From positions 8,928,001 to 8,992,000 of the forward strand of contig CAJFCV020000003.1 of NCBI GenBank assembly GCA_904066235.2: DNA of 64,000 nt, given 5' to 3'. Shown piece after piece: positions 7,000-58,153 of the stretch (position 1 is its first letter; each line of letters starts with the position of its first letter). Made by a program: the position numbers and the translations under genes. The notes beneath the pieces were generated by a model. That model worked only from the letters and a program-made list of their open reading frames with translations, was not told the DNA's origin and searched no databases. The DNA comes from Bursaphelenchus xylophilus. Lineage: Eukaryota > Nematoda > Chromadorea > Rhabditida > Aphelenchoididae.

Positions 7000-9132
7000 T
7001 TCCTCCGATTGTTTGAAGAGTTTGGGTTACTGTAACGGGTTGGAGTTTGGGTTACAGTGGTGGAAATGACGATCAAACTTGTCAAAAGTGACATCAAAAC
7101 GCCCATGGAGCTGATAGTCAACAGCCTAAGCCATAAATCATCGAAACACATAAATTATTTGGTCTAATATCAAGTGCAATATAAACAACTCAAAAAATCC
7201 CGAAATTTTCGAGTTCATTTCGATCAGTTTGCAACTAGGAATACTACGTACGCTTTCAGAGTTTACCGTCTTAAATTTTAAACGTTAACCAATAAGATAA
7301 AGTAATATTTTTATCATCTTGACTTACCGTCAAGTGCAATATATAAAGGTCACAAAATCGCAAAACCATTAGAAGAAAAAGCGCTATCTGTTCGAGATTG
7401 ACATGATCAAACTCTTTCTTACACAGTAATCGACAAAAGGTTAAGGAGCGGTGCACAGGTAATCTCCTTTTGCCAGTTACCTGCGGCACTACTACTTAGC
7501 CATCCAGTCAACCTTTTAATATCATTTCCCACTCATAAAACGACGAGACCACTAGATATTTAGCCAATACCATCTTGAGTTCATAATCAACTCATCTCCC
7601 ACCGAAACACTCAAATGCCTCCGGCAATCCGCAAGAATTGCTCAGCGCCAATGACGCTGCGATGGAATGATGAATGAGCGGAGAATAATCGAAAATGAGT
7701 CAAGATAGGCTGGCGCGTCGACCCTTTTATGGGCCAAATAGAAGCGAAATGAGTGATGTTAGTACACCTGGTGGCCAATGCTCCCAAAACGAGGGATCCC
7801 GAATCGAACCGGCGGCTGAAACAATCATTCCGCCCGTTGTGTGCGAGATACGTGGAGAAAATGGGAGAGAAAAAGATCCAGCGCGGCGATATACCGGCCC
7901 AATTTTACTCAATAAGACCACTGGCTAGATTGCTATCTAGAGCTTCAATTTGAAGATTACTAATTGCAAATTAAAGGGAGTTGATTAAATTTTATAGTCA
8001 AAATATTCAAAAAATATAATCTTTTGGTAAAAAATTGGCAAAAGATGACTTCTAAAATCGACTAACTTGTCGGTGGTCACATCGGATTTCAGACTTTCGA
8101 AGGGCATTACAGCCTTTAGCAGTAGTGTAAATGCTCGACGGAAATCTCAAAACCAAGGGACCGGCTGTCGAGGCATTTGACGGGCCAGTATGGCCTACAT
8201 CTCGGAAGCACACGGACCTACCAAAAGCCGGACAGCTGGGCGTAGACTGTAGCATACGAATACATGGGCACAGAGGTACAGCGAATACGTTGTTCAGGGC
8301 AGCAAAATTGATCAGAAAGAGTGTTGCAAAATTTTTTGGTCAAAATTTGTTTGAACGTAATTATGAGTACGAAAACCTACACGCCTTCTGAAACCGGATT
8401 CTAATTACAATTCAGTTTTAAACAGCCAAAATTTTGCATTACATTTATTTCAAGAGTCATATGATTTGTCATCATTTTTGTCACTGAAGCTCTAATGTTT
8501 TTTAGAGAGAATTTTATGCTCAAATCTGTAATTAAGCGGCTAAATCAGGCCCAGAAATGGCCATAAATTCATGAAAATTTAAGTAGTGTGTCGCAAAAGT
8601 CATTAAAATTGCAAAATAAGCTTTTTGGACTGCTCCTACCGCAATTTAGCTCTGATTTTTTTAAAAACCGCCTAATATTATACCATAAAGACTATTTTTT
8701 CTTGAGAGCTGGTTCCTTGACTCTTCCACATTCACTTCTACTCGAACCGATCTCTTACTCATATTCCGAACAAAAGCCACTCAAATGTTGTAAACTTTAT
8801 TTCACAAGCCCCTCCAACTATTCGAATACTCAGATCTTGCAACATTCTTCCTCAGAAAGCCCCACAAAGCACCGTAGCCCACGCGAATCGCTCTTGAATT
8901 CAGCGAGGACGGAGAACAACGGATCCGGCGGCCACAAACTTCGACGCTCCTTTTATAGGGCCGCAGCCAAGTCTCAGCCAGCATCAGCGGCTGAATCATG
9001 AGTCTTGAGAAGACGGACAATCGGGAGGGGGAAATGCCAGCCCCCCATTTGTGTCGGGTTTCTGATTCCCGTTTCTTTTTCGCGATCTCTCCCCGTCTTC
9101 GCCTCTCCGACTGGCACTGATCGGGATTCATT

Positions 9133-13846: not shown

Positions 13847-16800
13847 TTATGACCTCGGGGCGTTCACAGAGGCGATTCGCTTACAACTGCGGCTGCGGGC
13901 CAGGGCCGCCAGCGAGGTCTTCCGGGAACGAAACGAACGATGATGACGCGCTCCCACTGTTTCTTCGGCCACAGTGTTTGACGCCGCACTTCTGAAGAAC
14001 CGAGCGAAAATAAAAAAATTACAATGCAAATGAAGCTGGCATTGGCACCGCCGAGGTTCACGGAACACCGTAGGAAGTGGTGCCAATTTTTGGATAAGGA
14101 ATGGGGAGAAAGAGTGGACGTAGGAAGCGAGTAATCAACACTATTTTAGACTCCAAAAAGTGTTTGCTTTAGGGCTAATTTTTCGCAAAATCCGGCAACA
14201 ATTTGGCGAAAATGTATAGACTTGAACAGTGTGGGGATTCACGGAAATGAGGAAATGGAAGTGGATCTATTATGTCGCCTCTATAGAGGTAACAAAGTGC
14301 GATCCTTGCGGAAGAAGTGGGGGTTCTGGGAAGGGGATTGCAGACTTGGAATACTACGATTTTTAAGCCCAATTGCCTTCAAAAGTCTGAAAACAGAAAA
14401 AGAATTTGAAAAATGAAGGCATTTTCATATTGCACTAAAGTGCATGCACTAGCCATCAAATATATGTAGTGCAATATAAAAATGTCATTAGAAGAGGATT
14501 GTTAACACTCCCCGGTTATCTTTGAATTGTCGAAAAAGGTCGGAACATCAAAAAAATTTTGCAGAATAAAACAAATTTTTATCAGACATCAGATCTAGTG
14601 CAATTCAAAAAAATGTCTTATTGCAATATATTGTCATAAAAACTTTTAAAATTATTAAAATTGCCACTAAATAGCCCTAAAAAGGAAAAATTAATCCCAA
14701 AATATCTATAAAAGATGAAATTTTTTTTTTATTACACTTGATAAACTACAATCAAAAGTTCACCAGAACGATCTTTTTTCTCATCTCATTATTTTCAGAT
14801 AGGCTTAGAGCCGGGGAAAATATAAATAACGACTTGTTTTTACAACCTCCCCCTCCGCCATCGAAATCTACACCATGAGAAAAGGGGGGCCGGAAAACAT
14901 GTTTTTACCATATAAAATAGATTTGTATTCGGTTGTCCATAACTCATAAATTTCGTCGAAGACTGCAATTCGGCTCGCCATTACCTACGGATTGGAAATA
15001 TTGCAAGGGCAATTTTCAACTTTTTTGAAAACTTTTTTATATTTTTACCACTAAAAATTTGTTTAAAATCGTTAACATACCCTTTCTAAAAAAGATTTTT
15101 TCTGATATTATCCATGAATCAGCTCCTCAAAGACCTCAAAAATCACTTCTGTTTTACTACTTTGTCATTTGAAAAACTAATCTTGCCAGAGCAAAAATCA
15201 ACTTTTCAATTTTCGAATCTTACATGGTGTCATGTGGATAACCTTTTTTTGAAGTTAAATTTATCCTCCACATCATCCCCATAGTCCAACGGAGCCAACT
15301 CTGCCCTTCAGCTTGAATGATTTCCCTCTGTTTTATGAGTTTATTGTTTTCTGATACCTAGGCCATCCTGTTCTCGGTCATAATCGGGTCGTATTTCAAA
15401 AAGAAATAGAGATGACTTTCCGGTGAATTAAAAATAAAATTCATCGACATTGTAGGGTTCAATGAGGTGGGGCAAGGAGTTTTGATGACATTTCAAAAAT
15501 CAAGAAATGTAATTTGCATAATGAAAAGTCAGAGTTCCGTAAAACTGTAGGTTAATTTCTTCTATAACATGATTGAGTTCCCAGCTTACACTTTTCAGGC
15601 ACAACCGAAATTTTTAGTGGTGAAAATTCGACACATTTGCGAGTTTACGCATGAATCAGCCTTATTTTTGCAGAAAAGGGCAACGTTTCAACCAAGAAGA
15701 TTTTTTCCGCTCGAAATTAGCAAAGATATGGCCAAAGTTTTCTCTAACCGCTCTCTGAATTTTGCATACTATCTGCTCAACAAAGACCAATGAATATCTC
15801 GGCCGCCATTGCAAAGCGAGAGCTAAAATTCTCAGAACTTGGCATCCAACCAAGGCCTGACATGTAGGCAATATTTATCTTGCATTGAAATTAACAAAAA
15901 GGGAAATGTAATCAGGGTCAACCTTTGGCACAAGAAATGGGTGTGCCTTCAAAACACAGGTTAAACATCTTTTAAATGCCTCAGGAAATTAACATAAATT
16001 TCAACTGAGTTTCATCAACGGCTAGATGTGAAATTTCTAAGCGTTTCCTACGGTAATCAACCAATTTTCTGCAAATTTTTGGCCTAGTGTTACATTGCAA
16101 ACCAAGTCTAAAAACCTCAATAAAAAAGCAAAAAAAATGTGTCAATTTTCACCTTGAAATGTCTTATTACCTTCACAGACTCTCAAATTTTTGCAAACCG
16201 ATCTGTGTCATCAGCCTGCAAACCGACACGAGCTCAAACAAACCCGAGATTCCGAAAAAAGTCATCAAGACGCCCTTAGGGCCGAGATTGTGGCCACTTG
16301 AAAATGAAGAAAAAACAAATTAAAATTTGGAAGGGCCGGGTCAACGAAGAACAATGACATGATACAATAAAAAAGTATGGCTGGCCATGCGGTAAATTGA
16401 GCGGGGCTATAACTCCGCGACGAACGTTTCACGTCGTCTGGGGATTTGGGGTGTAAAAAAAGAAGGGGATGGAACGGGTGGGGCGGGAGTGCAGGACGGG
16501 GAAGATGGAGTAAAAATGGTGGAAAACAGAAGGGTTGGTAAATATATACAGTTAGTGCAATAAAAATACAACACCATTTTGTGTATGGACTTTTTTTCCA
16601 AAAAAAATAGTTCGCGGTTTACAGGTTTAGCCGAGATTTTCAACGGCCCTTGCCGAAGAGAGAGCATGAGAAATGTTGAGAACGGTCAATGAAAAATGTT
16701 TTTTGGCCATGCCTTTTCGAATTTGTAGTAAAAAGAAATGATTTTTTGGGACCTTAGACCTAGTAGTATATCTTACAAATTTTAGCAAAGTCGATTAAAT

Positions 16801-48314: not shown

Positions 48315-51199
48315 CACATACTCATCAAATTAATCACCCAAATCGGTCCTAGGATGTACATATAATTATAGATAACCTTTGGTCTAAAATCTCTTCAGTT
48401 CTTCGTATTTTAGGTCGCATTTTGCTTTATTCTAAAGTATTCTTTTTGCTCTCTCATTCCTTATATCCTAAATTTGATTTGTAATCATATCCGAGTTCAA
48501 AATCATCTCCCGATATTCCCCCATCATATCCCGGTAACAAAGAGTGCATAACGCGTCAAAACCCCTCCTCTTTTGTGCATATCATCATTCTCATTCAACA
48601 AGCCAAATCGCCGAATCTTCACCTATACTGTAACTTCCATTGTCCGCGAATTAAACGGCTCATCCATCAGATTTTGACCTTAATTTATACGAGCATGTGT
48701 CAGAAACGCAGAGCCGATCTGTTTCACAATGAAGTGTGTTTTCTGGTTACTGCGTCCGGTAAACAAGTCTATATATGTCTAGAGCAATAAACACATCTCA
48801 AGTTGGGGTTGATCTCTGATGTGCGGGCCTGATGGGCCTTTTTATAAAGGAAGGGGTTACTTATGAAACAAAAAAGGTAGAGTGTTTACTAATGCAGAGG
48901 TCTAAACGAACACTTATTGAAATTCTTGGAAAATACAAACATAAGAAAATACGGTTGTTAAATGAGGAGTTGGTGAACAAAAAAGAAGATAAAACAAGTC
49001 ATCTTCTCAACAACATAAAACTTGCTCGGCATATAAAAAAGCACCAAGAAACTTGTAAGCTATAGAAGGACTGTTTTATTACGCATATGGGCTTCTTATA
49101 CATATCCAAAATCAATGCTTCTGAAAGGGGTTGATAGCGACTACAGGAGGGCTTATTGGCTGCCAACCGACACTAGAAATAATTTACACACCAATTCGAA
49201 AAAAATTCCGCATTATCAAAAGTTTTGTAAGACAAAGCCGACAGTTTCTAAATTTTCCTGGCCGGGCTTTCGAAAATTGTAGGTCAAAGCCCTGCTGGAC
49301 CTCAAAATTTTAGTTCTGCCCGATTTCCAGCCATTGCGGTACAGTTTTCAACTTACCGGACAGGTATCCCAAATACGCTCAGATTCGTGCTCTGCAAAAA
49401 CATCCGAGAGCTTCAGGATAAAGGAAAATATAATAATATTTTTTTTCCTGGCCTACCGTCTCTTTCGCCTGCCTCTGCAAAGGTTGTCGATTATTTCCAG
49501 CATTTCCAAAATTGAAATCTTTAATACTTGAATATCACTCTTGTTAAAAAGTGTTCCTGCTTCTTACCGTAGTTTGCGTTTATAGAGAGAAACATTTATC
49601 AGGTACATATCTCAATAAAAAATCCTTACTGTAGAGTGATTAACTTCCTCTTTGTACTCCAAAATTCATTTTTCATCATCTTCTGGCAATGGATTTATTG
49701 CGTTACCTGAAAAGCAAAGAACAATGGTGCCTCAAAACAAGTTCATCTTCGTAAAAAGCAAACAAAGCTTTTTAACCGAATAAATCAGTGGTTGATCATC
49801 AATTTGTTGTCCCTAATGAAAGCGACTTGCAAAGGCTGTTATAAAGTTGGCTCTGTTTTCGCCAAATCGTTAATACATTTCTGAAATTCTCCATCTCAAT
49901 TAGTATCATACGGCTTGATATACAAGTTTTGCGTTCCAAAAAACACAATGACTGTCACCACAACTTGCACAAATATTCCTCGCCTACTTTAAACCGCACA
50001 TCCCCGCTATTCAACAGCATCCTCAACCCTACGACTTCAAAACTTCTTAAACTACAAAGCGACCGTCAGTCCTGGCTAATCGTGCTAAATATAGGCCTCC
50101 CGATGACAGCCAAATATACGGCTTTGGGGTCCATAAAAACCTGTCGCTTCCAGAGTGCATATTCAGTGCGCTTCTGGAATGTGGAAGTGTCATAAAAAAT
50201 GGCTGGGAAGGTCATTCCGCAAGCATAGGGAAATGACCATTAAAACAGATGTTTGGTCACTACTTCTGGAAGGCTGTAATATAGGATTTCATAGAGGGAA
50301 ATGGCATTCAAAGCAGTTTGAACATTATACTTTATAGCGGTCGTAGGAGAGATAAATCAAGGTGGAAATACTGCTGAAAGTGCAGCATAATTTATGTAAA
50401 ACTGCGGAATCAGTAGAACAGTCGACATTTCTGAGTATGTTACACAGTTTGAAAGCATTTCAAAATTGAGTGGCCAAAATTTTGATATAAAAACAAGAGT
50501 GAAGTTATGCTGTATAAGGATGCAGTTTAATAAGGGTTTTTGATTTTTGTATTCCTCCAGGACCTGCTGACACGTTGATTATAATTGCATGTAGACTTAG
50601 CAGATTAGGCTTCAAATTTCGCATGATTTTCTAGCAAGATCAAAGGTCAATCTCTGAAAATCTTGCTTCCTGCTTTGTAGACACACCCGTGAAATAAATA
50701 CGTTGATCTTTGAGGATACGGAACGACTAGAAAACAGTTTCTTCGACTAAATCCTTTCGAGATTTCTCGGTGTTGCATCCTTGCAATTTTGAAGGTAATG
50801 TATCCCTTTGGAAGATGCAGAACTGACCAAAAGAACGTCATCAAAATAACTTTTTTGAATTGATAGAATCATGGAAACATTATTCCTATGATGACGATTT
50901 AAAAAAGTGACATCATTTTGACAGTCTTAAAGTGATGTGAGTGAGAGTATCTTTAGAAATGACATCAAATGCAATCTCATTTCCGATCTAACAAATAGTT
51001 CTTCTACTGGCTCTAATGCATCGGTAATTTTCGTTGAATAAAATTACGTTCAATACGCTGTAAGTTGTACCCGAATTGTATGGCCACCCTTGTCGTTTAA
51101 TGCGCCCACTTAACGATCATATACGACAACAAAGTCGTTGACAGCCCTCCATTCGGCCGCGGCCCATAAGCGGCCCTAATCATAACCGTTCCGCTGATT
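48315..51199. other. Transporter 3' UTR and AT-rich intergenic DNA
   Basis: No supported gene. The plus-strand open frame at 48832-49065 (77 codons, Lys-rich) lies just after a polyadenylation signal and matches nothing I recognise. I see no transposon ends here. Confidence 0.45.
48786..48791 (+). terminator. Candidate AATAAA polyadenylation signal of the transporter gene
   Basis: Canonical AATAAA 472 bases after the stop codon. The 3' UTR would be longer than usual for a nematode, so an earlier weak signal could be used. Confidence 0.3.
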
Positions 51200-54100
51200 T
51201 ATGGCGCCGTTTTAATCTCCTTGGACATTAAAAAGTAAAATCTCCGCAATGGCCATAAATTAGGAGTCGAGTGGGCAGGGAGGGGAGTTTGGTTCGATTT
51301 GATGAAAAAAACGCCTGGAAGCGTCCGGTCGGGTTCGGTCGGGTTCGGTGGAGACGCGGGGGGAGAAAGGAGGGAGAACGGTGAAGGGGAGAGGAACGGG
51401 GGGACGACGAGACGCGTCTGTCTGCATGCGTGGTGTGGCGGTGGCGGAGTAGACTTGATTTGGAGTGCAGTTTGGGGACAAATGGACGCCGGAGCCGGTA
51501 CGACACAGCACGGCCGGCCCTCGGAGTGACCAGAGGTCGGGTTCGCGTTTTTTCTCCGCCGTCCCTTCGTTCCTCTCCGTTCGTTTTTTTTTATAATTTT
51601 TGTCTGGGTCCCACAATTTTCGTGTGTCCATGGGCCCCTCCCACTTTTGAAACATCGCCGGTGCCCCGAGGGCAACGTTCAGCACTTTTGTGCGGCCCGC
51701 AAAAGGTTGTCCAATTTGTAGGGCATCGTACGAAATTCGGACTAAATTTTGCACAAGTTTTTTTTCGCGGGGCCGTTCTTCGTGCGGCGGCTCGTACGAC
51801 CAGGTAATGGGGCTGTAATTTTCCGCCTTACACGCACCCGTCGTGCCAGTCCAGCGGCCGAAACATGCGGAAGAGCGCCCAAAGGTGACAACTGATTAAT
51901 TCGTTCCGTTTGCGCCGTCTGCCGCCATCTAATGCGAGGGTTTCGAATCTCCGGAAAATGTCTGGGAGTCGTTCCTCGGCTGGGGCAGTGAACGGCCGAG
52001 TAATGGGCTTATCGGTCTTCGCGCCACGGCCTTGCAGTGTTGGTGCAACACTTATCTTGTATCCCCGCCCTTTTAGTTTTTGCGCCCAGACGTTTCGCAG
52101 CAGCCCCGTACGAAAAAGCCGACTCTTCTGCCAGCCGATTTTTGGTGCAAAAGCCCCTTCCAGCTGACCTTGAGGCTGGCTGTCTGGCTGGACCTTGCCC
52201 CGATCCCCTCCCAGCCTCCTCCCCGTTCCCAGCCGAGATTCTCCTCCTCCTCCCCGGACCGTCGTCGAGTGAGGGCGGGTGTCGCGGCGACTACCACAGG
52301 TCCAGCGGCTTCGAAGTCGCGGCTTCCCGGTTGACGCAGCGCTCTCGCCTCGGCTAGACACCCACACGACCGACGAGATCATGTCGGAACGGAGGGTCAG
52401 CACTTTTGTTTATTCCTCCCAAGTGATCAGTGTTCTTTTATGGGGCGGCGGAACATGTCCGCGCTGATCTTCTTCCTCCTCCGTCGCTGACTCATCCCCT
52501 CCTCCCAATCCTGTTCGTTTTCTGGCTGACGCATCGGATGTGCTAAGTTCGGAGATGTTCCGGCCTTGTCTCATGGCGTACGTTTGTTAACCGAGGCCCC
52601 CATCCGAACGTTCTTGAACCTCCGAATTCCGATCATTTTTTGGGTGACAAATACGCACTGATAAACAATTTGTTTTATCGAAAAGGGAATGCCTGCGGGC
52701 TTCCTCGTTGCGTAATACATCAAAGTTTGAAAAGTTTGGTCTCAGCGCGATGTTCTGCAAGTATAAATACGCCAAAATTGCTTTTGATTCCGCGAAAATC
52801 CGTTGATTTTCCCATTTCTCCGAAGATTATTCCTAAATTTCTCTGTTTTAGATTAAGTTCCCCGTGATGTTCCGCTGATTCATGTTCGTATTCGTTGGAT
52901 TCTTGTTTGTTCTACATTCGGAATGGTGTGTGAGGTAAGTGAGTCGAGTCCTGCGTCAAAATCCTGCAAGAATTTCGGTGGTTTTCCCTAATATTCGCCT
53001 TATTTGGCCTAATTATTCTCCAAAATATTCGAATGTTCTACCAGTTTCTTGGCTGTTCTTTCCTCTTTCCGTTGGAATTTGCGCTTTTCTCTCCCCGCTG
53101 AACGTTGATCCGTTCCGGTTTCCTTTGAAGGCGTTCCTTTTTGCCCGCCAGAAATTCTTTATTTATCCTGGTCAAGACTGTTTTTTTTTTATTTTCTACA
53201 ATGTTTTGTTTATCCCGCGGTTATATCCCGAAGGCAATGCGGACGGGGGGTCAGTAAATGGTGTCAGGTCATTTTTCCAGGACTTTCACCACTCTCTTTT
53301 TTGTTGCACTTTGTCCCCTCCCCGGAGCGGGTCCCTCCGTCGACTCCGCGGTCTCTGCTCGGTGTGTCGTCGCCCTTCGCGAAGACCGCACCCTACTTTT
53401 TCTTTCTCCCGTCCCTCAGTCATTCGCTCCGGCTTCACTCGGCGTTTTTTCTCCTTTTTGAGGGTCACGTGCAACGATTTACTGTCCTAAGATCACCTTC
53501 TTGCCCTTATTTTGTTCGTTTTTGTCGTTTGCCGACGATTCCGAGGGTAGTTCCTGCTTCAGGACGTCCGTCTTGTCTGAAACTCCTCTTTTTTGCGATT
53601 CTAATTAGTGCGCTAGGATTACAAGCTCCCCGGCGCTGAATAGACGGTCTTTAAGGCGCTTTCAGTTGAGCCAAGATAAGTAATTATGAGTAGTTTTAAC
53701 TGGCAAATTGTTTTTCGCCGAAAAGATCCACCCGTATGACATCTGCTCCGCGTTCTGGTGATGAGTCAGCGGCGCCCACTTTAGCGGCCCGGTGTGATCT
53801 CATAGCTCGGGGCGGCCGGCTCAGCCAATAGGTGAGCCCAGCAGCTGGCTTTTGTTTCGGGGCGGCGCTACTATGCATAGGGCCTCGGCGTCGTTCGCAA
53901 ATTCTTCGGGCTGGTTTACTGCGAGTCCGCTGAAGCATCTCATTTCGGTTTTTTCTTGACTTGAAGAGGTATGCTTAAACTTTGAATTCGGTCTCTTCAA
54001 GGGCTGTCTTTAAACGGTTCGGTTTTCGAAACCGGTCGGTCCTCTGCGCGCGTCCTTTCGAAACCACCGCCGGCCGGGCAGCCGAACCAGGGGCCGGGTT

Positions 54101-55250
54101 AGGGGTCATGAGGGGCGACCGGCGGGCCCGAAGCACTCGCAGAACGACGCTAGCGTAGAGGAGAAGGTCTCTCCAAACACTCTGCTTTCTCTCCCTTCCC
54201 TTCGCTCCATCGTCTTCCCATCGTCCCGGCCTTCTACCGTAAACGAGCGAGGACAGGCGCCGCGTGGCACAAGTGCTAGTCGTCGGAGGACGGCAGGAGC
54301 GAAAGGGGAAGACGAAAGGAGAAGAAAAGGCGACTGTGGGAGCCTTCGTTCGAGGGCAGCAGTTGTCGAATGGAGGGTTTCCGGAGACCCCGACAAGAAC
54401 GCGGGCAGAGCCGCGACGACGATGCATCTTTTTCTGGGCAGAGAGCGAGCGGTGCATTCCACACACACTCACTGCCCAGTTTTTTCTAGCCTTAAAAGTG
54501 ATGGGGCGCGTTTGGCGAAGGGGAGCAGGCGTCTCCATCCCCACCACCACCACCTCTTCATGGGGTCGAGATGGGGAGTGGATGTGCGCCCTTTCCCTTC
54601 CACAGCACTCGCCATCATCATTCACTCACTCGCTGCTCTGTTTCTCGGTCTTTTCGGCGCCTCCAACCTCTCGGTTTTCGTCGATTTTGACCACTACCAC
54701 GCCCCCAAAAGGCCAGCTGTGCCGAAACGAGGGCCGGTCGGGTGGGGCAGGTTGCAGTGCCATTCTGCACTGGTCATCCGCCGCCGAGGGAGTGCGTCCG
54801 TTGGGGAGTGGGCGCGACGAACAGTGCGAAAACGCCGTCCACTGGGGTCAGAGGGTTGGGGTGGAGAGGGGGGAGGCCGCGGACGCGTCAATAGCAGACG
54901 GCGCCGCGTCAACGCCCGATTGTCCAGAGCCCGAACGATGGCGGGGCAGATGCCCTGCATTTCGGCGCACCACCCCCACTCTCCTCGCCTCGCCCGCTCT
55001 CTGCGGCGGCGGTAGTTGTGGGTATTAGCTTGTAGGGTGGGGGTTCGCCTCATCCTCCCAAGCCCCCCTCCCCAACGCCCATTCGGCTCGTCCGTCTGTC
55101 CAGCGCACTGGCCATTCCTTCTCCTCGAGACGCCGCCACTTTCCCCATGTCCATTCCCTCTTGCCGGTCTCGTGTCCACTCTTCTCTTCAGCCTCAAAAT
55201 CCCCAATTTTGGGCCGCTTTTTCCGGCTCCTCACAGTGATCGCGCATCCG
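51200..55250 (+). promoter_or_regulatory. GC-rich block, probable promoter/pri-miRNA region of the mir-100/let-7 cluster
   Basis: About 4 kb of markedly GC- and CpG-rich DNA in an otherwise AT-rich window. Long open frames occur on several frames and both strands at once (for example 54264-55028 + against 53975-54625 -). That is expected of GC-rich non-coding DNA, and none shows a known domain or nematode-like splicing. The block ends directly at the miR-100 precursor. The simplest reading is a promoter plus primary transcript for the microRNAs. A 5' UTR for the SLC49-like gene downstream is also possible. Confidence 0.45.
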
Positions 55251-55335
55251 ATCAACCCGTAGATCCGAACTTGTGTTTTTAATGTTGAGATAACACAGGC
55301 TTCGGAGCCGGGTCGTTCGAGTGTTCGTATTTCGA
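55235..55335 (+). ncRNA. mir-100: mir-100 microRNA precursor
   Basis: The mature 5p arm lies at 55254-55275 and begins AACCCGTAGATCCGAACTTG, identical to miR-100 of other animals. The opposite arm (about 55294-55315, starting CACAGGCTTCGGAG) pairs with it through most of its length, leaving an 18-base loop. The lower stem continues pairing outside the mature arms. MicroRNAs are cut by Drosha and Dicer and guide Argonaute to mRNA 3' UTRs. The miR-100 seed is shared with the C. elegans mir-51 family. let-7 follows 189 bases later on the same strand, so one primary transcript is likely. Confidence 0.95.
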
Positions 55336-55424
55336 GGAGCGGCGGTTCGGAATAGCCAAGAAACGAAAAAAATCGCAGAAAACCCACCGAAATGCAGAAA
55401 AACACCAAAAAACAAACAAAAAGC

Positions 55425-55525
55425 AATAATGGCGTCCGGTGTTGAGGTAGTAGGTTGTATAGTTCGCGTATTATCATTGGAGGTAACTGTGCAATCTGCT
55501 AGCTTACCATTTGGCCCATCTGCCT
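55425..55525 (+). ncRNA. let-7: let-7 microRNA precursor
   Basis: The mature 5p arm lies at 55443-55464, begins TGAGGTAGTAGGTTGTATAG and matches let-7 exactly over all 22 bases. The 3p arm (about 55487-55508, starting CTGTGCAATCTGC) pairs with it using many G:U wobbles, as in known let-7 hairpins. The lower stem CCGGTG/CATTTGG extends the helix. let-7 controls late developmental timing by repressing lin-41 and related targets. The terminal loop contains GGAG (55479-55482), the motif bound by LIN-28 in other animals. It lies 106 bases (end of 3p to AUG 55631: 122) upstream of the SLC49-like gene. Confidence 0.98.
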
Positions 55526-55587
55526 TGAAAATGGGGGGCAGGACTCGACTCGAACAACAGCGCTGATAACAGAATATAATTGAACGG

Positions 55588-55593
55588 AATAAA
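55588..55593 (+). terminator. Candidate AATAAA signal between let-7 and the SLC49-like gene
   Basis: A canonical hexamer between the let-7 hairpin and the next start codon, followed within about 10 bases by TTTCAAAG. It could end the primary microRNA transcript, with the downstream gene then trans-spliced. It may also be a chance match. Confidence 0.35.
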
Positions 55594-55630
55594 GGCATTT
55601 CAAAGCATTGGTTTTTGCACTTATTAACAA

Positions 55631-58153
55631 ATGTTTCGGGTCTACACACAACGATGGCTCGTGCTGTTGGTTGTGTGTCTGTTGAACTTCTCGAATGCGA
55701 TGGTAAGCCGATTCCGCGCCGCCCTAAACATGTTCAGCTAGACGTGGATTACATTCGCTCCGATCTCCTATTACACCAACTCCTTTTATGGCGACAGAAA
55801 TGCGGCGACTTTGTTGAATGTCATCTTCATGGCGGTCTCGATTCCGTGTGGGATTGTGGCGTTCTGGGGAGTGGATCGATTCGGGATTAGAGTTGTTGTA
55901 AGAGTTTTTCTGAACTAGGACGAATTTTGAGTCAAATTATTACACTTGACCCAGCAAAAGGATGAAATTAATCAGGGAATTTCTACGACATTTGCCAGAT
56001 TTTCAGCTTGCGTTTTGCAGAAAAAAATTGCAAATTCCTGGTGTCCATTTTTTTATTGAAAAATTCACCATTGATTTTTTATGCAGATGCAAAATTGGAA
56101 CAAATTCAATGTTACTCTTGGAATAATCCACCTCTAAAATATCACGCTTAACCCATCAAAACCACCTCAAATTAAGATTTAGTGTATTGCTGGTGCTGTT
56201 TTCAATTTCCTCGGGAATTTGATCCGTTTCTCGGCCGTCTTCTTATCCGGTCCAGCCAGATTTTGGTTGACCTTGTTCGGCCAAGCCTTGGCCGCCTCGA
56301 TCCAGCCGTTCGTCATGTATCTGACCACCAAGACTGCTGCTATTTGGTTCCCAAACTCGGAGAGAGTGACCGCAAACACGTTGGCGGCGCTCTCCAATTC
56401 GCTGGGTGTGGCGACCATGTACTCCATATCGCCACTTGTTGTTAACAGCAACTCGAAAGTGGACTTTATGATCTTGGTAAGAGAAGGGTGCAATTTTCGT
56501 TGGTTCGAAAATTTTTAACTGATTTTAAAGTAGTTTGAAGTCAACATAAGGTCTCGGAAATGGTATAAAAGTCAAGATGACATTAGGAATGGCAGATTCA
56601 GCACTTATGAAGGGCCATTTTTCATAAGCCCAAACAGATTTCCAGAGATTTATGTCGCTTTTTACTCAAGCTGACTCTTCTAATAGCATTTTTCCAATTT
56701 CGAAATCGAAAAAACTATGATTCATAGGGCTTATAATCATTTCAAAGACGAATCGCTTGAACCTTTCGAGGCCGTTTCGAAGAAGAATCAATTCAAAAAG
56801 GCCAAGGAAATGTTTCTTTTTGAAGGATAATACTCTAAAATAACGTTTGGAAAAAAATGAATTTTTGTGTAAAAATTAAGCGGCTCTCATCAAAAAGAAA
56901 ACAATATTTTCAAACCCAATGCCCTAAATTTTATCAAAATTTAAGACTGGAAGTTACTGTATCAAATTTAATAAAATGCTCTCAGAATGGCCTAACCTCC
57001 CTCCTGACCTTGATTACTTTAATCCTATCATTTGGAGTGACCAGAACGGCCCCCAAAACTCCTCCATCCGCCTCAGGCGATGGCTCAACCGATGCCGGAG
57101 ACTTCAAAAAAAGTTTGAAGACTCTGATCACCGACAAGAATTTTATCATCCTAAACATGGCAGTTGGAAGTGGAGTTGGTCTGTTCAATTGTCTTTTCAA
57201 CAACCTTCAACCAACGCTCTGCTCTCAAGGCTATGACGTCACTATTATCTCGTTATGTGGGAGTGGAATGATAGTGGCCGGACTGGTTGGATCCGCCATC
57301 ACCGGAGTTATTGTGGACCGAACAAAACGCTTCAATGAGGCCTACAAGCTTTGTCTCAGCATGACCGCCATTTGCACAATTCCAATGTCTTTGTTCGTGC
57401 TGCGCGAGAATCAACCCGCTCTGGTGATGCTGTCCATTTTCTGCTTCGGCTTCTTCGGTCTGGCCACTTATCCGGTCAGTCTGGAACTGGCCGTGGAGTG
57501 CACTTTTCCGGTGCCGGAGGCCTTTTCCTCGGGCTGTTTGATATTTTTCGGGTAAGCACTAAACCCGTTGGACCCTTTTTTGGGCGGAATAAAAGCCTCC
57601 AAGGCGCGGCGCTGACCTCCACTCCCACTCGCGTTGCAGGGGCCCTAAAAGCGCGGGGTAATGGACGCCGAGGAGCGGGGTCAAGTCCGCCATGGAGAGT
57701 AGGACTGATTCCCTCGGCAATTGCGCAATTTCAGGCAAATCTTTGGTATAATCTACATAATTGCGACCTCCTTGCTTACCACCGCACCCACCGATCAAAT
57801 GCGAGCCCATCAGACTTGCACTCGGGTCGATTTGGATGTGGAGATTCTTCAGTGGAATAGTAAGTAAAAAACACAAAAAATTGAAATTTAAATCTCGTAC
57901 TAGTACTCTTTGCGGGCTCCAACAGACATGTGATTAAAGATTAAATCATAAAAGCGGATTTGCTGACATAAAAGTCACTAAATTATATTACGCTAGACCT
58001 AATCAACAAAATTCTAACATTTGATGAATTTCAGCCGCTCAATACCTTTGGATGGGTAGCATAATCGCGACAGCTCTCTTCAGTGTTGTACTATTTACTC
58101 CCAAATATCAACGGATGGAACATGAAAAAGAGAAAACACAAGATTTATCCTAA
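55631..58153 (+). CDS. SLC49/FLVCR-like major facilitator transporter
   Basis: A 12-helix MFS protein of the SLC49 group (FLVCR1/2, MFSD7/SLC49A3, DIRC2); characterised members move haem, choline or other small organic solutes. Exons: 55631-55702, 55742-55897, 56183-56476, 56986-57551, 57735-57859 and 58035-58153, giving 443 residues in frame. Signature stretches are QRWLVLLVVCLLNFSNAMTW, FAPISYYTNSFYG, and TKTAAIWFPNSERVTANTLAALSNSLG. The last matches the family's TKxAAxWFP...ATAN motif. The N-terminal tail is short (about 8 residues), unlike FLVCR1, and fits an SLC49A3-like protein. Intron 1 is only 39 nt. The gene starts 122 bases after the let-7 3p arm, so the two may share a promoter or transcript. 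Its 3' end meets aconitase. Confidence 0.85.

What the first reader, a model, noticed from the sequence alone, without database searches (positions are those of the whole stretch)
55235..55525. Linked mir-100 and let-7: the ancestral cluster kept in a nematode
Both mature sequences are perfect, both hairpins fold by eye, and they lie on the same strand 189 bases apart. A mir-100/let-7/mir-125 cluster is established as ancestral in bilaterians. In C. elegans let-7 stands alone and the mir-100 relatives (mir-51 family) are elsewhere. A nematode that keeps mir-100 next to let-7 bears on when the cluster broke up and whether both are made from one developmentally timed transcript. Similar linkage may already be known in some parasitic nematodes, which I cannot check.
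Basis: partly seen in the sequence, partly recalled or inferred. Interest (0 to 1): 0.9.

Follow-up and report, generated by a model that had tools for sequence, protein, structure and literature searches.

The report
Pinewood nematode's mir-100/let-7 microRNA pair
Two ancient animal microRNA genes, mir-100 and let-7, sit side by side in this roundworm (very probably the pinewood nematode), as they do in flies and humans; the pairing is real, but it was already reported in other parasitic roundworms, so it is an expected find.

Summary
An exact miR-100 and an exact let-7 lie on the same strand, start to start 189 bases apart, each in a stable hairpin. The assembly's sizes match Bursaphelenchus xylophilus v5, the pinewood nematode. 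Both miRNAs are published for that species; its first survey calls miR-100 the most abundant. Searches here found one close copy of each. The third ancestral member, a lin-4/mir-125 relative, lies on another contig (C2), so this is a reduced two-gene cluster.

The linkage is not new for nematodes: it is in print for Brugia and for Meloidogyne incognita, another plant parasite, and its loss is placed in the C. elegans/Pristionchus lineage. None of the passages and listings I saw states it for B. xylophilus.

The one unusual point is that published mature levels do not track each other. The miR-100:let-7 ratio is about 25-31 in three growth libraries and 0.2-0.3 in the cold-shocked and dispersal-stage ones. 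If one transcript makes both, something after transcription splits them. LIN-28 acting on let-7 is a candidate (two LIN-28-like genes and a GGAG let-7 loop exist), but that is untested and would not explain the fall of miR-100.

The parts
55254..55276 (+). miR-100-5p mature sequence (23-nt form reported by Huang 2010)
   Evidence: Exact match; identical to the published B. xylophilus sequence
55247..55322 (+). mir-100 hairpin (extent of the Rfam mir-10 alignment)
   Evidence: RF00104 28.7 bits, below gathering 47.5; fold of 55235-55335 z -3.23
55295..55316 (+). predicted miR-100-3p (star arm)
   Evidence: Inferred from fold pairing with 2-nt 3' overhangs; not compared with reads
55443..55464 (+). 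let-7-5p mature sequence
   Evidence: Exact match; identical to the published B. xylophilus sequence
55437..55512 (+). let-7 hairpin
   Evidence: RF00027 54.5 bits, above gathering 53.5; fold of 55425-55525 z -4.15
55487..55508 (+). predicted let-7-3p (star arm)
   Evidence: Inferred from fold pairing with 2-nt 3' overhangs; not compared with reads
55479..55482 (+). GGAG in the let-7 terminal loop (LIN28-type binding motif; the motif is recalled, not from a call)
   Evidence: Sequence; four bases, weak by itself
55331..55429 (+). A-rich spacer between the folded hairpins; no AATAAA, ATTAAA or AATGAA and none of the acceptor patterns scanned
   Evidence: Sequence and + strand motif scan of 53000-57000
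55182..55191 (+). TTCTCTTCAG, candidate (trans-)splice acceptor upstream of mir-100
   Evidence: Motif scan; consensus match only
55588..55593 (+). AATAAA, candidate poly(A) signal of the primary transcript; the only one of the three hexamers scanned between 53000 and 56855
   Evidence: Motif scan; consensus match only
55654..57555 (+). neighbouring downstream gene: MFS transporter (possible start codon at 55654, by eye; ORF with an MFS_1 domain at 56839-57555)
   Evidence: PF07690 E 3.5e-9 on ORF 56839-57555; the ORF 56183-56518 between had no Pfam match; possible start codon from sequence

Best explanation
This is the conserved mir-100/let-7 microRNA pair of B. xylophilus, the reduced two-gene form of the bilaterian mir-100/let-7/mir-125 cluster. 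Most likely one primary transcript, starting upstream in the GC-rich stretch, carries both hairpins and ends at the AATAAA just after let-7. Drosha and Dicer would cut out both, miR-100 serving as an abundant general miRNA and let-7 as the late-stage timing miRNA. Because published mature levels diverge, the outputs must be set separately after transcription. LIN-28-type blocking of let-7 is the likeliest let-7 arm of this, and faster loss of miR-100 in cold and dispersal stages a second. Shown: both sequences, both hairpins, same strand, no second close copy found, published reads. Inferred: the single transcript, its ends, the division of roles, and LIN-28 control.
For: Exact mature sequences and hairpins. 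One let-7 locus and one mir-100 locus found in 78.25 Mb. Published reads for both in this species. mir-100 upstream of let-7 as in the fly complex, where miR-100 is first. Close linkage also in Brugia (under 2 kb) and Meloidogyne (about 350 bp, one strand given). None of the scanned poly(A) or acceptor motifs in the spacer. [quoted passage not shown] Two genes with a cold-shock domain followed by two CCHC knuckles on C1.
Against: Published miR-100:let-7 ratios of 27.2, 0.18, 0.30, 30.65 and 25.36 over five libraries, log correlation -0.69, n = 5 (from the table), are not what simple co-expression predicts. LIN-28 could raise or lower let-7 but does not explain a 42- to 65-fold fall of miR-100. 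The table showed one value per library. No transcript data were available here. In 4 of 4 PDB searches the cold-shock and knuckle exons had a better match than LIN-28 (Y-box proteins or retroviral Gag/nucleocapsid). GGAG is only four bases. The order of the two genes in Brugia and Meloidogyne was not given in the passages I saw.
Confidence: 0.8

Rival explanations
1. Two independently transcribed genes that merely stayed neighbours: let-7 has its own start site in or near the spacer, and the linkage is a relic without joint regulation.
For: Mature levels move in opposite directions in the cold-shocked and dispersal-stage libraries relative to the growth library. C. elegans runs let-7 without a mir-100 neighbour.
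Against: Spacer is only about 100 nt, with none of the scanned poly(A) or acceptor motifs. Fly cluster members from one transcript also differ in mature level, so divergence does not require two promoters.
Confidence: 0.15
2. The pair lies in the 5' part of a longer transcript shared with the downstream MFS transporter gene (operon-like or 5' UTR).
For: Same strand; a possible start codon of that gene about 140 nt after the let-7 hairpin.
Against: An AATAAA lies between let-7 and that codon. No transcript data either way; the gene's start is by eye.
Confidence: 0.15
3. The published divergence in mature levels is a library artefact, and both miRNAs really follow one transcript closely.
For: One value per library in the table read. 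In Meloidogyne, let-7 was much higher by RT-PCR than by sequencing, so let-7 counts can mislead.
Against: The three ordinary-growth libraries agree with each other (ratios 25-31) and the other two differ from the ZJ growth library by about 90- and 150-fold.
Confidence: 0.35
4. Chance, contamination or assembly artefact rather than a real nematode cluster.
For: The mir-100 hairpin misses Rfam's curated threshold.
Against: Both sequences are exact, folded, on a 12.7-Mb contig beside animal-type genes, and both are published for this species.
Confidence: 0.01

Closest known systems
Meloidogyne incognita miR-100/let-7 cluster (Wang 2015, PMC4524723; passages read)
   Same: Plant-parasitic nematode; a miR-100 within about 350 bp of let-7, one strand given for the cluster; let-7 mature identical
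   Different: M. incognita has 3 miR-100 paralogues with a changed 3' end (...AACUAGUC); here one close locus was found, with the human-type mature sequence. Gene order in M. incognita not given in the passages
[quoted passage not shown] passages read; credited there to Poole 2010, which I did not see)
   Same: Two-gene cluster; mir-125 not identified with it
   Different: B. malayi has four miR-100 paralogues; here one close locus was found, and a lin-4/mir-125 relative was located on another contig
Drosophila let-7-Complex (PMC9247461; abstract, introduction and discussion read)
   Same: mir-100 first; conserved miR-100 and let-7; differential output of cluster members
   Different: The fly complex includes mir-125 and is one transcript; in fly let-7 reads exceed miR-100, in B. 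xylophilus growth libraries miR-100 exceeds let-7
Centipede Strigamia maritima mir-100/let-7 pair (PMC4244043; passage read)
   Same: mir-100 and let-7 within 1 kb, mir-125 not in the cluster
   Different: mir-125 could not be identified in the centipede; here a lin-4-like gene exists elsewhere

Membership tests
mir-100/let-7 two-gene cluster (as in Brugia and Meloidogyne) | mir-100 hairpin with conserved mature sequence | tested here: met
   Exact mature, stable hairpin; published reads
mir-100/let-7 two-gene cluster (as in Brugia and Meloidogyne) | let-7 hairpin with conserved mature sequence | tested here: met
   RF00027 above gathering; fold
mir-100/let-7 two-gene cluster (as in Brugia and Meloidogyne) | within 2 kb (the cut-off of both papers), same strand | tested here: met
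   189 nt start to start, both +
Full bilaterian mir-100/let-7/mir-125 cluster | mir-125/lin-4 in the same cluster | tested here: not met
   No mir-125 or lin-4 site up to 5 mismatches in the 64-kb window; a lin-4-like hairpin on contig C2 instead
Full bilaterian mir-100/let-7/mir-125 cluster | single polycistronic primary transcript | not testable with these tools
   No RNA data held; motif evidence only
Rfam mir-10 family RF00104 | reaches the curated gathering score | tested here: not met
   28.7 of 47.5 bits; mature identity and published reads suggest the model is too narrow for this hairpin
lin-4/mir-125 family RF00052 (contig C2 gene) | reaches the curated gathering score | tested here: not met
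   27 of 40 bits, E 0.133; at the same lax E limit 7 of 14 prokaryotic control genomes also gave matches, none over the cut-off
lin-4/mir-125 family RF00052 (contig C2 gene) | seed TCCCTGAGA in the 5' arm of a stable hairpin | tested here: met
   TCCCTGAGACTATAACTGTGA; -39 kcal/mol, z -4.06, 0 of 200 shuffles as good
LIN-28 (two genes on contig C1) | cold-shock domain followed by two CCHC zinc knuckles (recalled as the LIN-28 order) | tested here: met
   L023 and L024; the other 2 of 4 cold-shock loci show no such knuckles in their fetched 3.2 kb
LIN-28 (two genes on contig C1) | LIN-28 as best sequence match | tested here: not met
   PDB only, each exon searched apart: LIN-28 matches in 4 of 4 searches but never ranks first (L023 knuckles 7.1e-5 against 2.1e-7; L024 knuckles 4.4e-7 against 1.3e-7; L023 CSD 8.2e-12 against 1.3e-14; L024 CSD 3.2e-9 against 5.1e-13)

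The most novel reading that the evidence does not exclude
In this nematode a single mir-100 gene, source of its most abundant reported miRNA, is made from the same transcript as let-7, and a post-transcriptional switch flips the output of that transcript roughly 100-fold from miR-100 to let-7 on cold shock and in the dispersal stage, making the cluster a stress or dispersal toggle rather than a simple timing unit.
Probability: 0.15. Interest if true: 0.6.

Novelty: new member of a known kind. Interest (0 to 1): 0.2.

Why it matters
It adds B. xylophilus to the nematodes known to keep mir-100 beside let-7. With Brugia and Meloidogyne already in print, this agrees with a break-up in the lineage of C. 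elegans and Pristionchus. It also shows a lin-4/mir-125 relative separated from the pair while the pair stayed together. With one close copy of each gene found and a published swing in their ratio, this species would be a clean place to ask how one locus gives two differently regulated miRNAs. None of this changes the accepted picture.

Tried and rejected
Other mir-100 loci: the 3-mismatch site on C6 does not fold as a miRNA hairpin (z -0.40, 68 of 200 shuffles as good; one search had folded the wrong strand). The relaxed seed pattern gave only this locus, while its backwards control gave 2 hits. No mir-10-like site was found up to 3 mismatches. Against that, Huang 2010 lists a miR-10 candidate, by seed, in the dispersal library only. 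These patterns would miss distant mir-51-type relatives, so 'one copy' holds for close relatives only, and in an assembly copy with 8 of the 11 published scaffolds.

A second lin-4-like site on C5 (2 mismatches) does not fold (z +1.74, 196 of 200 shuffles as good); rejected. The backwards control of that pattern also gave 1 hit.

let-7 targets: 15 NHL matches lie at 7 places by my tally, and 9.9 kb was fetched around each. One, C1:3971131-3972398, looks LIN-41-like by eye. Downstream of its last NHL match there is no CTACCTC or TACCTC within 3 kb and no TATACAAC or ATACAACC within 3.5 kb; TGCCTCA, a weaker G:U-type seed site, occurs twice (+971 and +3255). Among the 7 places the only CTACCTC was at L044 (+2498), TACCTC occurred at 4 of 7 (L044, L046, L047, L050), and no CTCAGGG or TACGGGT (lin-4 and miR-100 seed sites) was found within 3 kb at any. 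True 3' UTRs were not mapped, so this neither supports nor refutes a conserved let-7/lin-41 link.

Coding explanation: the 15 ORFs of 110 aa or more listed between 51199 and 55733 had no Pfam match at E 0.01 (0 of 15; 7, 8).

Synteny in other nematodes could not be tested: the tool says the genome has no relatives here. The Ascaris miRNA paper is not held. Passages of seven more papers gave no statement on the linkage in what was shown: PMC9188560, PMC4428239, PMC2486268, PMC12461141, PMC4842261, PMC5120318, PMC7284814.

Full report
What is there. The window carries an exact miR-100 (AACCCGTAGATCCGAACTTGTG, 55254) and an exact let-7 (TGAGGTAGTAGGTTGTATAGTT, 55443), both on the + strand, 189 nt start to start. 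Each sits in the 5' arm of a hairpin that folds better than nearly all of 200 shuffles (z -3.23 and -4.15). let-7 passes Rfam's gathering score narrowly (54.5 against 53.5). mir-100 aligns to the whole mir-10 model but stays far below it (28.7 against 47.5). Fold pairing gives let-7-3p CTGTGCAATCTGCTAGCTTACC at 55487-55508 and miR-100-3p at 55295-55316; I did not compare these with reads.

Where it is. The assembly (G000) has 78,253,340 bases in 8 contigs. Its contig sizes of 15,101,617, 12,794,883 and 12,140,115 agree with the published maximum, N50 and N90 of Bursaphelenchus xylophilus v5: 15,101, 12,794 and 12,140 kb (PMC7561696, whole text read). The published assembly has 11 scaffolds; this copy has 8, so it may lack small ones. 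Seventeen GH45 cellulase matches, which I count as 11 gene places, and 15 SL1-variant sites agree with a Bursaphelenchus nematode. That GH45 is telling among nematodes is recalled.

Copy number. Whole-genome searches found one let-7 (Rfam; pattern up to 3 mismatches) and one mir-100 (Rfam E 0.003, with a weak opposite-strand echo; pattern; relaxed seed pattern). Controls: for the mir-10 model at the lax E limit of 10, 7 of 14 prokaryotic genomes also gave matches, none over the cut-off; the backwards control gave 0 hits and 2 hits. The second pattern hit, on C6 with 3 mismatches, has no hairpin. No mir-10 site was found up to 3 mismatches, although Huang 2010 lists a seed-based miR-10 candidate in one library. 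Such searches do not see distant relatives.

The missing third member. A lin-4/mir-125 relative, TCCCTGAGACTATAACTGTGA, lies on contig C2 at 5462746-5462766 in a strong hairpin (-39 kcal/mol, z -4.06). It is below Rfam's threshold (27 against 40 bits, E 0.133), and 7 of 14 prokaryotic controls gave matches at the same lax limit, none over the cut-off. I call it lin-4/mir-125 from its seed and hairpin, without reads of its own. If right, the ancestral trio is split here: mir-100 and let-7 together, lin-4/mir-125 elsewhere.

What is in print. Huang 2010 (PMC2953492, passages read) sequenced five B. xylophilus small-RNA libraries, calls miR-100 the most abundant miRNA, lists let-7 third in its table of the top ten conserved candidates, and names both among precursors verified by PCR on genomic DNA. 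The passages I saw do not mention their linkage; of 15 and 22 places found in two look-ups, 12 were shown each time. [quoted passage not shown] elegans. [quoted passage not shown] elegans and P. pacificus. The same paper's text also lists P. pacificus among parasites with miR-100, while its Table 3 gives it no star, so that point is inconsistent there. A 2025 paper instead treats C. elegans miR-51 as the miR-100 orthologue (PMC12407057, passages). The centipede Strigamia also keeps mir-100/let-7 without mir-125 in the cluster (PMC4244043, passage).

How far the 'not in print' statement goes. I found no paper stating the linkage in B. xylophilus. The searches were (20 of 48 papers listed; 20 of 20; 2 of 2; 2 of 2; 9 of 9; 4 of 5; 9 of 9; 7 of 7), over openly licensed papers only. 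Fifteen papers were opened in all: one read whole, one in abstract and two sections, the rest in passages; the others were seen as listings. Figure 6B of Wang 2015 might show it, and figures and supplements were not available.

How it most likely works. The spacer between the hairpins is A-rich, about 100 nt, without the poly(A) hexamers or acceptor patterns scanned. The nearest such motifs are TTCTCTTCAG at 55182 upstream and AATAAA at 55588 downstream. This fits one primary transcript carrying both hairpins, but these are consensus matches only. Upstream lies a GC- and CpG-rich stretch, about 51000-55300; the 15 ORFs of 110 aa or more listed there and over the cluster gave no Pfam match. Downstream is an MFS transporter gene on the same strand.

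A problem for simple co-expression. Huang's table gives miR-100 counts of 9,798, 234.8, 150, 9,283.8 and 12,227.3, and let-7 counts of 360.2, 1,307.8, 507, 302.9 and 482.1, for the growth (ZJ), cold-shocked, dispersal J3, Canadian and US libraries. The ratios are 27.2, 0.18, 0.30, 30.65 and 25.36. With one close miR-100 locus found, paralogues do not easily explain this. Either the libraries mislead or output is split after transcription. In flies, members of this cluster are co-transcribed and differ in processing (PMC9247461, abstract, introduction and discussion read). For ticks a post-transcriptional cause was suggested for unequal miR-100 and let-7, although the same paper found similar trends over life stages (PMC3141673, passages). 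In Meloidogyne, reads of miR-100b (2,870,101) and let-7 (223) differ enormously, but RT-PCR found let-7 much higher than sequencing did, which is a warning about let-7 counts.

LIN-28 as a candidate. Four cold-shock domains were found. Two of them, about 44 kb apart on C1, are followed by two CCHC knuckles, the order recalled for LIN-28. LIN-28 chains match in 4 of 4 PDB searches of the separate exons but never rank first; Y-box proteins and retroviral Gag/nucleocapsid chains do. The let-7 loop holds GGAG at 55479, the motif recalled for LIN28 binding. This makes LIN-28 control of let-7 possible. It does not account for the fall of miR-100.

Verdict. A correct observation of a real, published-as-expressed, conserved microRNA pair. 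It is a new member of a known kind in a species where both miRNAs were already described. The claim that it bears on when the cluster broke up is right in direction, but the answer was largely in print.

Noticed in passing
window 7433-7507 (-): mir-252 hairpin just above Rfam's gathering score (45.5 against 45 bits); it contains the miR-252 sequence published for B. xylophilus (compared by eye).
   Followed up: partly
window 14414-14490 (+): Weak mir-130-like Rfam match, 30.7 bits against a gathering score of 40.6, E 0.043; probably chance.
   Followed up: no
window 54186-54324 (-): Weak mir-2238-like Rfam match, 22.2 bits against a gathering score of 52.2, E 0.24 in a 4-kb search; probably chance.
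   Followed up: no
window 51000-55300: GC- and CpG-rich stretch directly upstream of the microRNA pair in a window that is otherwise more AT-rich; no Pfam match in the 15 ORFs of 110 aa or more listed there and over the cluster.
   Followed up: partly
L023 and L024 (contig C1, about 9.49 and 9.44 Mb): Two LIN-28-like genes (cold-shock domain plus two CCHC knuckles) about 44 kb apart; a possible duplication.
   Followed up: partly
L004 1501-1600 (contig C2:5462733-5462832): lin-4/mir-125-like hairpin that Rfam's curated threshold misses (27 against 40 bits).
   Followed up: yes
contig C6, 4853015-4855596 and 5052062-5069617: Fifteen copies of an SL1 variant (one change from the SL1 sequence recalled), many spaced about 911 bp apart.
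   Followed up: no
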